In this document: positions 14,582-63,665 of the stretch, one piece after another
Layout: the number at the start of each line of letters is the position of its first letter
Numbering within the stretch: position 1 is the first letter of the stretch
Position numbers and translations under genes: made by a program
Assembly: GCA_039555135.1 (NCBI GenBank)
Contig: CP114179.1
Span: 1,364,001 to 1,428,000 of the forward strand
Length of the DNA stretch: 64,000 bases
Direction: 5' to 3'
Source: Phycisphaeraceae bacterium D3-23
Lineage (GTDB): Bacteria; Planctomycetota; Phycisphaerae; Phycisphaerales; Phycisphaeraceae
Notes under the pieces: generated by a model
Databases searched by the model: none
What the model was told of the DNA's origin: nothing
What the model saw: only the letters and a program-made list of their open reading frames with translations

Positions 14582-14600
14582 GCGCCCACACCCTGCGCTG

Positions 14601-14673
14601 TTTCGCCGCCGCCCAGCGGGCAGCGCGTGGCTTCTCGTAGCATCGACGCGCTGCCCGTTGGGCGACGGCGAAA
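14601..14673. repeat. Intergenic palindrome, 'GCCCGTTGGGCGACGG' family
   Basis: 28-bp arms (14601-14628, 14646-14673), near-perfect reverse complements ending in CCGTTGGGCGACGGCGAAA. Relatives lie at 37405-37432 (half), 48717-48800 and 60832-60911. It may also terminate the esterase transcript. Apart from this and the promoter region of the HTH gene, the 14582-14921 gap shows nothing else. Confidence 0.9.
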
Positions 14674-14921
14674 CAAACGTCTCGCGACCCGATTTCTCGT
14701 CCATCTACCCGCCCCCAAAAAAAGCAGGGCGACGCCCGGAAACGCCGCCCCACCCCGAATAATCTGCATTCATTGTCCCTAAACAGCGTTCCCAGCGGTG
14801 AGAATCGGGCTGCACACTTTCCACGGCGCGGCACCCACCCGCCGATACGATTGCATGTGGACATAGGCCGGTGTTACGTTGTAGCCGGCTACCCTTCGCA
14901 CTCCGGGCCGGAGACTCACCC

Positions 14922-15419: not shown

Positions 15420-15429
15420 GCGAAGCGGG

Positions 15430-15499
15430 GAGTAGCCACAGATTTCACAGATTGCGCCGATTCTAAATCTGTGTCGATCTGTGAAATCTGTGGCTACTC
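15430..15499. repeat. Palindrome with 23-bp perfect arms ('CACAGATTTCACAGAT' type)
   Basis: Arms 15430-15452 and 15477-15499 are exact reverse complements (AGCCACAGATTTCACAGAT). It lies 10 bases after the HTH gene and can form a strong hairpin. A half-copy (ATCTGTGAAATCTGTGG) occurs near 27350, beside another repeat array. Confidence 0.9.
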
Positions 15500-15541
15500 C
15501 GCTCTGTTACCCGTAACATAAGCAGAGAAAGTGAGGCCTCG

Positions 15542-20580: not shown

Positions 20581-21147
20581 TTAGACCTCTTCGATCTGCT
20601 TGCTCTTCTCAGCCACCAGCTCGTCGATCTGCGACTCGTGCTTCTTCAAGAGCTCCTGGATGTCGTCCTTCGCGGCCTTGACATCGTCCTCGGACAGGTG
20701 CGCGTCCTTGTCCTTGCCCATCTGGTCGATGTGCTTGTTCGCATCACGCCGAGCGTTGCGCACCGCGACCTTCGCCTGCTCGCCCATCTGCTTGACCGAG
20801 CCGATGAGTTCCTTTCGGCGATCGCCCGACAGCGCGGGGATGCTGATCCGCACCGTCTTGCCGTCCGCCTGCGGGTTCAGACCGAGCCCGGCCTTCTCGA
20901 TGCCCTTGATGATGTCCTGCACCGTCCCCGGGTCGAACGGCTTGACCAACAACTGCGACGGCTCCGGGGCCTGCACCATCGCCAACGAACGAAGCTCCGA
21001 CTCGCTGCCATAGCACTCGACCTTCACAAACTCGATCAGCGACGGCGTCGCCCGCCCGGTGCGCACGCCCTTGAGCTCGCTCTTCAGGTAGTCCACGCTC
21101 TTGGCCATCGTGGCGGTCGCGTCTTTTTGGATGCTGTTCAGGTCCAT
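20581..21147 (-). CDS. frr: Ribosome recycling factor
   Basis: 188 residues, the usual length. With EF-G it splits the post-termination ribosome. Family features: LKSELKGVRTGRATPSLIE (the conserved R-T-G-R-A near the N-terminus), VQDIIKGIEKAGLGLNPQAD, then VRISIPALSGDRRKELI and a long C-terminal helix with NARRDANKHIDQM. In most bacteria frr follows pyrH directly. Here pyrH lies upstream on the same strand, but a zinc-ribbon gene flanked by inverted repeats separates them. Confidence 0.97.
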   Translation of the reverse strand: MDLNSIQKDATATMAKSVDYLKSELKGVRTGRATPSLIEFVKVECYGSESELRSLAMVQAPEPSQLLVKPFDPGTVQDIIKGIEKAGLGLNPQADGKTVRISIPALSGDRRKELIGSVKQMGEQAKVAVRNARRDANKHIDQMGKDKDAHLSEDDVKAAKDDIQELLKKHESQIDELVAEKSKQIEEV

Positions 21148-21227: not shown

Positions 21228-21269
21228 ACGCCAAGGGGCCAAGGCGGGCCAAGAAGCCAAGGAAGGCAG
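21228..21269. repeat. Array of GGCCAAGG units, frr side of the inserted gene
   Basis: GCCAAGGGGCCAAGGCGGGC then CAAGAAGCCAAGGAAGGCAG. The reverse complement with about one mismatch in 32 bases lies at 21711-21750, beside pyrH. Confidence 0.88.
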
Positions 21270-21356
21270 ACGGGTGCCACATAGCGCAGCTATGTGCTTC
21301 GCAAGGTACGAGGTTGGTTGGCAGTCACGCACATAGCTGCGCTATGTGGCACCCGT
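21270..21356. repeat. 27-bp-arm inverted repeat 'GGGTGCCACATAGC'
   Basis: Arms at 21270-21296 and 21330-21356 are exact or nearly exact reverse complements (GGGTGCCACATAGCGCAGC). The second arm contains the TAG stop and last codons of the gene at 21342. Confidence 0.9.
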
Positions 21357-21698
21357 CGATAGTCGCGATAACTGATCCTGCAACTGCTTGATTTGTTTTG
21401 CGCGTTCTTTGTTATGTGGCCGTGCCTTCAGTCTACGAATCTTGTAGACAATCTGCCTGTGTCGCCACATGGCCCACTGCACACGCTGATCGTGTCGGAG
21501 CCGTTTGTGATCCAACAGAGCTTTGCGCAGTTTCCGCCACCCACGGATATCACGTTTCTTGGGAACCGGCACCTTATAGCCGATCAGCTTGCATGGCCCC
21601 GCACACGATGGACAACGCGGCGGCTTGTTCTCACCAAACCGCTCGCGACGAACACACATCCGACAATCAAAGCACACCCAACTATCCGAAGCCGGCAT
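21342..21698 (-). CDS. Small basic zinc-ribbon protein, repeat-flanked cargo
   Basis: 118 residues. SWVCFDCRMCVRRERFGENK and PPRCPSCAGPCKLIGYKVPV form two C-x2-C knuckles of a zinc ribbon. The rest is strongly basic and helical (RKLRKALLDHKRLRHDQRVQ, RRLKARPHNKERAKQIKQL), suggesting nucleic-acid binding. The start at 21698 has AGGAGG seven bases upstream; that site lies at the inner edge of the repeat array at 21711-21750. The last five residues (STGAT) and the stop are encoded by the 21330-21356 repeat arm. The gene separates pyrH from frr. Function unknown. Confidence 0.82.
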   Translation of the reverse strand: MPASDSWVCFDCRMCVRRERFGENKPPRCPSCAGPCKLIGYKVPVPKKRDIRGWRKLRKALLDHKRLRHDQRVQWAMWRHRQIVYKIRRLKARPHNKERAKQIKQLQDQLSRLSTGAT

Positions 21699-21710
21699 GA
21701 ACGACCTCCT

Positions 21711-21750
21711 CCCCCTTGGCTTCTTGGCCCCCCTTGGCCCCTTGGCCAAC
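21711..21750. repeat. Array of GGCCAAGG units, pyrH side of the inserted gene
   Basis: Inverted partner of 21228-21269; it ends eight bases before the pyrH stop codon. Confidence 0.88.
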
Positions 21751-21757
21751 CACCCAA

Positions 21758-22494
21758 TCACCCCGCCGAAACCCGCGTCCCGTGCGGCGTCCCCGCGACC
21801 ACCTCCGCGATATTCCCCGGCTGCTTCATGTCGAACACCACGATCGGGATGTTGCGCTCCTGGCACATCGCAAACGCCGTCGTGTCCATCACGCCCAATT
21901 CCTTCTCGATCGCTTCCTTAAACGTCAGCGTGTCGTAGCGCACCGCATCATCAAACTTGTTCGGGTCACGATCGTAGATGCCGTCCACCTTCGTCGCCTT
22001 CAAGACCGCATCCGCCCCGATCTCCGCGGCCCGCAGCGCCGCGGCGCTGTCCGTCGTGAAGAACGGGTTGCCCGTCCCGCCCACGAAGATCACCACCCGC
22101 CCCTTCTCCAGGTGACGAAGCGCCCGCCCGCGGATGTACCGCTCGGCCACGCTCGTCACCGACAGCGCACTCATCACCCGCGCCGGCTGCCCCAGACGCT
22201 CGAGCGCTTCTTTCAATGCGAGCCCGTTGATCACCGTCCCGAGCATCCCCATGTAGTCGGCCGAGGCCTGGTCGAACTTCCCCGTCGCCGCCAAAGTCCC
22301 CCCCCCGAATAATGTTCCCGCCCCCCACCACCACCGCGAGCTGCACGCCGTGCTGCGCCGCGTCGTACACCTCCCGCGCAATCAGCTCCAGCTCCGCCGG
22401 GTCGATCCCCGACCCGCCGGGCGCGCAGAGCGCTTCGCCCGAGACTTTAAAGCAAGACACGTTTGTAAGTTGGGCTTCCGGGGGCGTCGGGCAT
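21758..22494 (-). CDS. pyrH: UMP kinase, reading frame broken twice
   Basis: Amino-acid-kinase-fold enzyme phosphorylating UMP to UDP. Joining three frames gives a full protein: MPDAPGSPTYKRVLLKVSGE (start ATG at 22494), GIDPAELELIAREVYDA, VVVGGGNIIRGGTLAATGKF, ADYMGMLGTVINGLALKEAL, GGTGNPFFTTDSAAALRAAE, IGADAVLKATKVDGIYD, DTTAFAMCQERNIPIVVFDM. The first break is at about 22446-22452, where CTTTAAAG should be CTTAAAG; the second is in the nine-C run at 22298-22306, where eight would be in frame. Both are +1 changes. A GTG at 22460 could start a truncated form without the first beta strand. Divergent from acs. Confidence 0.88.
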
Positions 22495-22630: not shown

Positions 22631-24742
<2,112 letters not shown>

Positions 24743-24885: not shown

Positions 24886-25548
24886 ATGCCTCATCCCCCT
24901 CCATTCCGGGTCATCACCTACATCGACGGCTTCAATCTCTACTACGGCATGCGTGCGGCGGGGTTCCGACGGTACTACTGGCTCGACCTCGTCGCACTGG
25001 CAAGGAACCTGACCAAGCCCAACCAGACGCTCGTGGCCACCAAGTACTTCACCGCACGCATCGCCGGGCCCAGGCCCGCAGACTCCGCCCGCAAGAAAGC
25101 GGCCCTCGAAGAGAAACGCAAACGCCAAACCCACTACCTGGATGCGCTCCAGACCCTCCCGGACTTCCTGATGTACGAGGGCCATTACCTGCCCAAAGAC
25201 CGGCGCTGCCGACAATGCAACGCCCGCTGGACCGACCACGAAGAGAAGATGACCGATGTCAATATCGCCACCCAACTCCTCGTGGACGGCTTCCACGACG
25301 CCTTCGACACCGCGATCATCATCTCCGGCGACAGCGACCTGACCCCGCCCACCCTGGCCCTGCGCGAACACTACCCCGAGAAACGCATCATCGTCGCCTT
25401 CCCACCCAAACGACACTCCGTCCAACTCAAACGCGCCGCCCACGCCAGCTTCACCCTCGGCCGCGCCACGCTCAAACGCTCGCTCTTGCCCCAACAAGTG
25501 ATCCAGCCCAACGGCCACATCCTGAGACAGCCCCGCCGCTGGCAGTGA
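24886..25548 (+). CDS. NYN-domain (PIN-like) putative ribonuclease
   Basis: 220 residues of the LabA/DUF88 type, a PIN-like nuclease fold. The metal-binding aspartates are visible: [17 protein letters not shown] at the N-terminus, [17 protein letters not shown] in the middle and [19 protein letters not shown] later. An internal [16 protein letters not shown] adds a C-x2-C pair. The C-terminus is basic. Such proteins cut RNA in maturation, decay or defence. The gene lies between the real acs end and a duplicated acs end, so it arrived as cargo or within a duplication. No partner antitoxin is evident. Confidence 0.85.
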
Positions 25549-25595: not shown

Positions 25596-25717
25596 CCCGC
25601 TCGGGCAAGATCATGCGCCGCCTCCTAAGAGACATCGCCGCCGGCCGCGAAATCACCTCCGATATCACCACCCTCGAAGACAAGTCGATCGTGGAGAAAC
25701 TGCAGGCGAGTGGGTGA
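25596..25717 (+). pseudogene. Duplicated 3' end of acs (copy 2)
   Basis: 122 bases matching 24621-24742 at roughly 96 percent. It still encodes the C-terminal [20 protein letters not shown] and ends LQASG-stop, with CTC/CTG, AGC/AGT, GGA/GGG and TAG/TGA as the visible changes. No promoter or start is attached. The pattern suggests a fragment from the acs gene of a related strain, or the original acs terminus displaced by an insertion that carried a replacement. The rest of the 25549-25859 gap holds the repeats at 25743 and 25798. Confidence 0.9.
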
Positions 25718-25742: not shown

Positions 25743-25780
25743 TTGAACCACGAAGACACGAAGGGCACGAAGGAAGGCAG
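25743..25780. repeat. Left inverted array (CACGAAGGA type) of the three-gene patch
   Basis: TTGAACCACGAAGACACGAA then GGGCACGAAGGAAGGCAG. The inverted partner is at 27378-27413; the inward end GGAAGGCAG is shared with other arrays here. Confidence 0.85.
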
Positions 25781-25797
25781 AGCAAGCGAACGGTAGG

Positions 25798-48708: not shown

Positions 48709-48716
48709 GCATCTCG

Positions 48717-48800
48717 TTTAGCCGTCGCCCAACGGGCGGCGCGCCGTTTGTGATGACAACAAGGACAAGGCGGCGCGCCGCCCGTTGGGCGACGGCTAAA
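48717..48800. repeat. Intergenic palindrome with 29-bp perfect arms
   Basis: Best copy of the family: arms 48717-48745 and 48772-48800 (TTTAGCCGTCGCCCAACGGG then CGGCGCGCC), exact reverse complements, 26-base spacer. It lies between two converging genes. Confidence 0.95.
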
Positions 48801-48851
48801 CAATCGGCACGCAACGACCCAACTGAAATCGCTGCGAGCTCATATCCCGCC

Positions 48852-60789: not shown

Positions 60790-60831
60790 AACACCAGCAT
60801 ACCACCCGCCCCGCCGTGACTGCACGACCTG

Positions 60832-60911
60832 TTTCGCCGCCGCCCAACGCGCGGCGCGTGGGCCTGCGGGTATCCGGGTACCAACGCGCCGCCCGTTGGG
60901 CGACGGCTAAA
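60832..60911. repeat. Intergenic palindrome, GCCCGTTGGGCGACGG family
   Basis: Arms 60832-60859 and 60884-60911, with a few mismatches (GCCGCCCAACGCGCGGCGCG against CGCGCCGCCCGTTGGGCG). It fills most of the 60790-60939 gap. Confidence 0.9.
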
Positions 60912-60939
60912 CGGATCGGCCTGCGCGATGGGGCCTGGC

Positions 60940-63582: not shown

Positions 63583-63665
63583 AAGTGAGTGAACAGTGCA
63601 CAGTGAGCAGTGAACAGGTAAGGCCTTGCCTGTTCACTGTGGACTATTCACTGTTCACTTGTGAC
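63583..63665. repeat. Inverted repeat of GTGAACAGTG units
   Basis: Left arm AGTGAACAGTGCACAGTGAG then CAGTGAACAGG; right arm CCTGTTCACTGTGGACTATT then CACTGTTCACTT. Centre TAAGGCCTTG. It ends at the stop codon of the kinase gene. Confidence 0.85.

What the first reader, a model, noticed from the sequence alone, without database searches (positions are those of the whole stretch)
21228..21750. Array-bounded zinc-ribbon gene splits the pyrH-frr pair
pyrH and frr are adjacent in most bacteria. Here they stay on one strand but are separated by a basic zinc-ribbon gene whose boundaries are near-identical inverted GGCCAAGG arrays (about 32 bases, one mismatch). The array starts just after the pyrH stop, and its inner edge contributes the cargo gene's AGGAGG ribosome site.
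Basis: partly seen in the sequence, partly recalled or inferred. Interest (0 to 1): 0.8.

Follow-up and report, generated by a model that had tools for sequence, protein, structure and literature searches.

The report
Single-gene cassette between mirrored repeat arrays
A small zinc-ribbon gene sits between the essential genes pyrH and frr inside a pair of mirror-image short-repeat arrays, and it is one of dozens of such array-bounded units in this planctomycete genome; they look like mobile gene cassettes of a kind for which I found no description, and the repeat pattern at their ends depends on which gene is inside.

Summary
In detail: 33-nt inverted GCCAAG arrays (one mismatch) at 21230-21262 and 21714-21746 enclose a basic zinc-ribbon ORF between pyrH and frr. 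It is not isolated. The genome has 81 GCCAAGNNGCCAAG hits (0 with the reversed pattern), mostly as inverted pairs around one small gene (GxxExxY twice, NADAR, phosphatase, lipoprotein) or a short non-coding spacer. In sister genomes the pyrH-frr site carries a different gene between related arrays; several other sites are empty. All 4 GxxExxY genes here, and 26 of 27 tested in the family, lie between inverted arrays whose motif differs between loci but matches between the two arms of one locus. Four-helix-bundle genes show the same with heptamers (22 of 29 array-bounded loci, against 0 of 48 for GxxExxY). Zinc-ribbon relatives elsewhere are integron cassettes or have no repeats, so this cargo looks like a hitchhiker. 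Best reading: a family of inverted-tandem-array-bounded single-gene cassettes that fold into hairpins and move or are exchanged as units. The mobiliser is unknown; a cargo-encoded GxxExxY-type nuclease is a candidate. Integron and REP-transposase explanations were not supported. No exact empty site was found at pyrH-frr itself, and one other site points to loss, not gain.

The parts
21758..22381 (-). pyrH (UMP kinase), 3' part; upstream codons 22310-22460 are in another frame across a run of nine C
   Evidence: ORF list; tblastn against sister pyrH loci
21714..21746 (.). array arm next to pyrH: (GCCAAG)x4 with spacers GG, GGGG, AA when read on the minus strand
   Evidence: the repeat finder I1, 97% complementary to the other arm; whole-genome family
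21705..21710 (-). AGGAGG ribosome site of the zinc-ribbon gene, 3 nt inside the array arm and 6 nt before the ATG
   Evidence: sequence
21342..21698 (-). cargo: basic zinc-ribbon protein, 118 aa (WVCFDC...CPSC...GYKVPVPKKRD plus a long helical C-terminus); no Pfam or NCBIfam family
   Evidence: homologues; model pLDDT 78
21269..21357 (.). nested perfect inverted repeat, 29-nt arms with a 31-nt loop (GGGTGCCACATAGC...), including the cargo stop codon; also present, shorter, in G019 next to the same right-hand array
21230..21262 (.). array arm next to frr: GCCAAG GG GCCAAG GCGG GCCAAG AA GCCAAG G
   Evidence: the repeat finder I1
20581..21147 (-). frr (ribosome recycling factor)
   Evidence: single copy in 46 of 51 family genomes
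23573..23692 (.). second array hairpin: an in-frame insertion of about 34 codons in acs (acetyl-CoA synthetase), arms of GGYCAAGY units about 23581-23625 and 23642-23679, flanked by GACTACAACTGG / GACGTCTACTGG (9 of 12 identical)
   Evidence: sequence; alignment to solved Acs leaves query residues 316-349 unmatched
63588..63659 (.). array hairpin with heptamer units AGTGAAC AGTGCAC AGTGAGC AGTGAAC, no cargo
   Evidence: inverted repeat I8
15424..15505 (.). array-type hairpin (GCCACAGATTTCACAGAT), no cargo
   Evidence: inverted repeat I11

Best explanation
The segment is a single-gene cassette bounded by inverted tandem arrays, one member of a large dispersed family. SHOWN: two matching inverted arrays enclose one small gene or an empty spacer; the arms can pair into one long hairpin on a single strand; units lie between genes, and one hairpin lies in frame inside acs; the same sites hold different cargo, or nothing, in relatives; array motif varies between units but matches between the two arms of one unit; array period goes with cargo family (8-10 nt for GxxExxY, mostly 7 nt for four-helix-bundle genes). 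INFERRED: the unit moves or is exchanged as a whole, through a folded single-strand intermediate or through recombination between array-bearing alleles. Arrays serve as ends and as portable homology, so resident cargo can be swapped. The two arms stay matched because one is copied from the other in the hairpin, or because the unit is copied from one strand. Units that carry GxxExxY (PD-(D/E)XK nuclease fold) or four-helix-bundle genes are the probable self-propagating kinds, each with its own array grammar; the zinc-ribbon, NADAR, phosphatase and empty units use GxxExxY-type arrays and would be passengers.
For: 81 vs 0 array hits, mostly as facing pairs. 45 two-armed units in own and sister genomes; arms match within a unit more than when shuffled among units (z 8.3, 0 of 10,000; own genome alone z 5.5). 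Outer edge consensus TTTTAAC. Cargo annotated as GxxExxY, NADAR, dual-specificity phosphatase, unknown. Different cargo at pyrH-frr in G016 and G019. Array-free counterparts in G019 at other sites; one site has phosphatase (own), other content (G016) and 4 bp between the stop codons (G019). The same unknown cargo gene lies at unrelated sites in own genome and G016. GxxExxY flanked by matching inverted arrays in 26 of 27 family loci and 18 of 27 wider loci; four-helix-bundle genes in 21 of 27 and 9 of 13; frr 0 of 26; random positions 22 of 1500. Period 7 in 22 of 29 vs 0 of 48, Fisher p 1.5e-13. Array number per genome follows GxxExxY copy number (rho 0.55), not Y1 transposases (rho 0.08).
Against: No movement was observed. 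No exact empty site at pyrH-frr. At lolC-lolD the cassette is shared with the more distant G016 and absent from the nearer G019, which points to loss or allele replacement there, not recent insertion. Target duplications are only suggestive (acs 9 of 12; lolCD overlap). No enzyme is shown to act on arrays. Relatedness of genomes is not controlled in the copy-number correlation. The loci compared are the best-scoring matches, usually one per genome. One-armed and mosaic units exist (L191, L160).
Confidence: 0.6

Rival explanations
1. RNA-level element: the arms form a long stem in the transcript (terminator or RNase III-type processing site, as in 23S rRNA intervening sequences), and genes in the loop are tolerated or regulated; mobility is incidental.
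For: Arms pair strongly; the four-helix-bundle cargo is the family of 23S intervening-sequence proteins (PF05635); units sit inside operons (atpH-atpA, lolC-lolD) where excision from mRNA would help.
Against: Does not explain different cargo at one site, cargo-specific array period, or tandem-repeat arms; stems 400-600 nt apart are unusual for terminators; no Rfam match in the 2.2-kb segment.
Confidence: 0.2
2. Passive recombination: the arrays are ordinary dispersed repeats; cargo is exchanged by homologous or annealing recombination between arrays at different sites, without a dedicated enzyme.
For: Same site with different cargo and partly shared right end in own genome and G019; arms about 33 nt; mosaic arms in L191 and L160.
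Against: Does not explain how new sites are colonised (in-frame acs hairpin, 4-bp convergent gap), nor why array period follows cargo family.
Confidence: 0.25
3. Integron cassettes: the arms are degenerate attC sites handled by an integron integrase.
For: Zinc-ribbon relatives are integron cassettes in several genomes; edges carry AAC...GTT; some relatives have IntI.
Against: Own genome has no IntI match above the cut-off; only 8 of 90 edges fit RYYYAAC; units are dispersed singly, not in an array beside an integrase.
Confidence: 0.04
4. REPIN-like units moved by a RAYT/Y1 transposase.
For: Palindromic, dispersed, intergenic; Y1_Tnp homologues exist (3 weak ones here).
Against: Array number does not follow Y1_Tnp number (rho 0.08); ends vary in sequence from unit to unit, unlike REPs.
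Confidence: 0.04

Closest known systems
Mobile insertion cassettes (MIC) and MITEs (from general knowledge)
   Same: Inverted terminal repeats around a passenger gene or nothing, no transposase inside
   Different: Known ones have fixed ends recognised by one transposase; here the ends are tandem arrays whose motif changes from unit to unit while the arms stay matched
Integron gene cassettes
   Same: One small accessory gene per unit; the zinc-ribbon gene family itself is carried by integrons in other bacteria
   Different: No attC, no integrase in this genome, dispersed single units
REPINs / RAYT system
   Same: Dispersed intergenic hairpins
   Different: No correlation with Y1 transposases; carry genes; variable arrays
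23S rRNA intervening sequences with four-helix-bundle ORF (PF05635)
   Same: Inverted-repeat stem around a four-helix-bundle gene
   Different: Here at protein-gene junctions, with tandem heptamer arms; also with other cargo
Heptamer direct repeats of cyanobacteria and Beggiatoaceae (TAACTGA, PMC4679880)
   Same: Short tandem intergenic repeats with 7-nt period
   Different: Reported as direct repeats upstream of genes, with a single inverted case in that genome; no cargo-bounding pairs described in the passages read

Membership tests
Integron cassette | attC core sites (RYYYAAC ... GTTRRRY) at the boundary | tested here: not met
   8 of 90 outer edges fit RYYYAAC; consensus TTTTAAC; by contrast attC-type cores flank zinc-ribbon relatives in L212, L214, L219, L220 and, downstream only, L222
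Integron cassette | integron integrase in the genome | tested here: not met
   TIGR02249: no match over the cut-off in G000
REPIN/RAYT | number of elements goes with a Y1 REP transposase | tested here: not met
   rho 0.08 over 51 genomes
MIC/MITE-like inverted-repeat element | matched inverted ends around cargo, many copies | tested here: met
MIC/MITE-like inverted-repeat element | ends conserved across copies and shared with an autonomous transposon | tested here: not met
   array motif differs between loci; no shared transposon was found, but only two transposase/integrase families were searched
MIC/MITE-like inverted-repeat element | target-site duplication | tested here: inconclusive
   acs 9 of 12; lolC-lolD overlap duplicated but direction unclear; none evident at the phosphatase site
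23S rRNA intervening sequence | located in 23S rRNA and removed from the rRNA | tested here: not met
   units examined lie beside protein-coding genes; window unit is between pyrH and frr, no Rfam hit
23S rRNA intervening sequence | stem cut by RNase III | not testable with these tools
   needs RNA data

The most novel reading that the evidence does not exclude
A distinct class of mobile gene cassette whose ends are inverted tandem arrays that evolve freely in sequence but are kept identical on both sides, with at least two autonomous lineages, a GxxExxY nuclease kind (8-10-nt units) and a four-helix-bundle kind (7-nt units), that also carry passenger genes such as the zinc ribbon here and leave empty hairpins across genomes.
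Probability: 0.4. Interest if true: 0.9.

Novelty: new variant of a known kind. Interest (0 to 1): 0.74.

Why it matters
GxxExxY and four-helix-bundle proteins are very common in environmental genomes and have no known role. If they are the engines, or the chief passengers, of array-bounded cassettes, this explains both their spread and many unexplained short palindromic arrays in intergenic DNA. It would also add a route besides integrons and transposons by which single genes enter tight operons such as lolCD, atp and pyrH-frr, and it poses a clean question: how can the two ends of an element stay identical while their sequence drifts?

Tried and rejected
First attempts at a protein alignment failed on coordinates and were redone. 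Integron and RAYT ideas were tested and not supported. No array match in viral contigs, no zinc-ribbon match in phages and one weak plasmid match. Literature searches by array sequence, by GxxExxY and by combined terms found no description; only open PubMed Central text was searched. A gain-only reading of array-free sites was dropped after G016 was found to share the lolC-lolD cassette. No tRNA or Rfam feature explains the locus. A fold search of the zinc-ribbon model was not run because the model is mostly one helical hairpin of moderate confidence.

Full report
What is there. Between pyrH and frr (both minus strand) the window holds a 33-nt array at 21230-21262 and its inverse at 21714-21746, with one mismatch and 451 nt between. 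Inside are a zinc-ribbon gene (CDS 21342-21698, minus) and a nested perfect inverted repeat of 29 nt. The AGGAGG of the gene stands 3 nt inside the array arm. As a single strand the unit folds with both arms paired, z -11.2. The protein has no Pfam or NCBIfam family; five relatives align on WVCFDCxxxVRR, CPxC and GYKxPVPxKR, and the model shows a small strand region followed by a helical hairpin.

It is one of many. In the 4.62-Mb genome GCCAAGNNGCCAAG occurs 81 times, against 0 for the reversed pattern. Most hits form facing pairs. Units range from empty hairpins (16-50 nt between arms) to 630 nt of cargo. Cargo genes include GxxExxY (TIGR04256) twice, a NADAR protein, a dual-specificity phosphatase, a lipoprotein-like protein and unknowns. 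Forty-five two-armed units from this and sister genomes share an outer edge TTTTAAC followed by three to four GCCAAGNN units; arms match within a unit far better than between units (z 8.3; edges). Several units contain another array pair of a different motif in the loop (sequence). Such arrays are abundant in about a third of 51 family genomes (16 with 15 or more) and nearly absent in the rest.

Comparison of sites. pyrH-frr: own genome zinc ribbon; G016 a 99-aa ORF between AACGCCAAGAC arrays; G019 a small membrane protein with decayed arrays but a right end shared with ours (GGGTGCCACATAGC hairpin, then CTTCCTTGGC); G018 no array. Of own-genome units elsewhere, flanks were found in G019 for most of 18 tested, and the array unit is absent there at lolC-lolD, the phosphatase site, and the sites in L046, L007, L052 (two) and L013. 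The phosphatase site is 4 bp between convergent stop codons in G019, and a different array unit in G016. At lolC-lolD, G016 shares the cassette and the lolD start ATGACGTC, so the nearer relative G019 probably lost it or received an empty allele. One unknown cargo gene occurs at unrelated sites in own genome and G016; the G016 copy has a GCCAAG left arm and a GCAGAG right arm. In acs of this window an array hairpin forms an in-frame insertion of about 34 codons that solved acetyl-CoA synthetases lack, with a possible 12-nt duplication at its edges.

The general rule. GxxExxY loci were collected without reference to arrays. In the family, 26 of 27 have matching inverted arrays within 200 nt on both sides; in a wider sample of the phylum 18 of 27; in G009 5 of 7. 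Motifs differ from locus to locus (CGCCAAG, CACAGAG, CGCAGAG, CACGAAG, CAGGAT, TCGGAT) but agree between the two arms. Four-helix-bundle loci: 21 of 27 in the family and 9 of 13 in own genome plus G009, with mostly 7-nt units (AGTTAAA, CGGGTAT, GGTCAAA). Controls: frr 0 of 26; random positions 22 of 1500. Period 7 is best in 22 of 29 four-helix-bundle arrays and 0 of 48 GxxExxY arrays (p 1.5e-13; one duplicate locus left out in each group). In own genome one four-helix-bundle gene with arrays sits between atpH and atpA.

The zinc ribbon is probably a passenger. Its relatives are few (4 of 50 other family genomes), scattered over Planctomycetota and Gamma- and Betaproteobacteria, and sit in integron cassettes in at least four genomes (L212, L214, L219, L220; L222 has a core on one side), or without repeats, as beside a CBS-domain gene in G016 and G019. 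None of the 14 has inverted arrays.

Mechanism. Best supported: an inverted-array-bounded cassette that moves or is swapped as a unit. What acts on the arrays is not shown. An integron integrase is absent here and edges do not fit attC; Y1 transposase number does not follow array number (rho 0.08) whereas GxxExxY number does (rho 0.55), without phylogenetic correction. The cargo-to-period rule makes the cargo protein a plausible recogniser of its own arrays, but this is inference. Passive recombination between arrays and an RNA-processing role remain open.

Known or new. Within the open literature searched, no description was found; subscription journals and preprints were not searchable. The architecture is nearest to inverted-repeat-bounded cassettes (MIC/MITE), but lacks conserved ends, so it is filed as a new variant with a substantial chance of being a class of its own.

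Noticed in passing
window 23573-23692: An array hairpin (GGYCAAGY units) is inserted in frame in acs, adding about 34 residues missing from solved acetyl-CoA synthetases; edges GACTACAACTGG / GACGTCTACTGG may be a target duplication.
   Followed up: partly
window 24621-24738 and 25596-25713: The 3' end of acs is repeated directly (118 nt, 98%) about 0.97 kb downstream, with a gene at 24886-25548 (looks like a NYN/LabA-type protein, not tested) between the copies, like an integration that rebuilt its target.
   Followed up: no
window 22300-22310: pyrH changes frame at a run of nine C: sequencing error or real frameshift.
   Followed up: no
window 14599-14675, 48716-48801, 60825-60918: A dispersed REP-like palindrome family (GTTTAGCCGTCGCCCAACGGGCGGCGCG...), arms 31-38 nt.
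   Followed up: no
window 25743-25782: A one-sided array of CACGAAG units (AACCACGAAGACACGAAGGGCACGAAGGAAGGCAG); no inverse partner was seen in the next 900 nt read.
   Followed up: partly
L062 / L212 (G035): A chromosomal integron with near-identical attC-type sites carries a zinc-ribbon homologue.
   Followed up: partly
L211 (G000:C1:3147190-3147700): A four-helix-bundle gene with GGCCAAGT arrays lies between atpH and atpA of the ATP synthase operon.
   Followed up: partly
L191 and L160 (G016): Mosaic units: one arm of GCCAAG type and the other of GCAGAG type, with the same inner edge GGAAGGCAG in L191, suggesting motif turnover or arm exchange.
   Followed up: no
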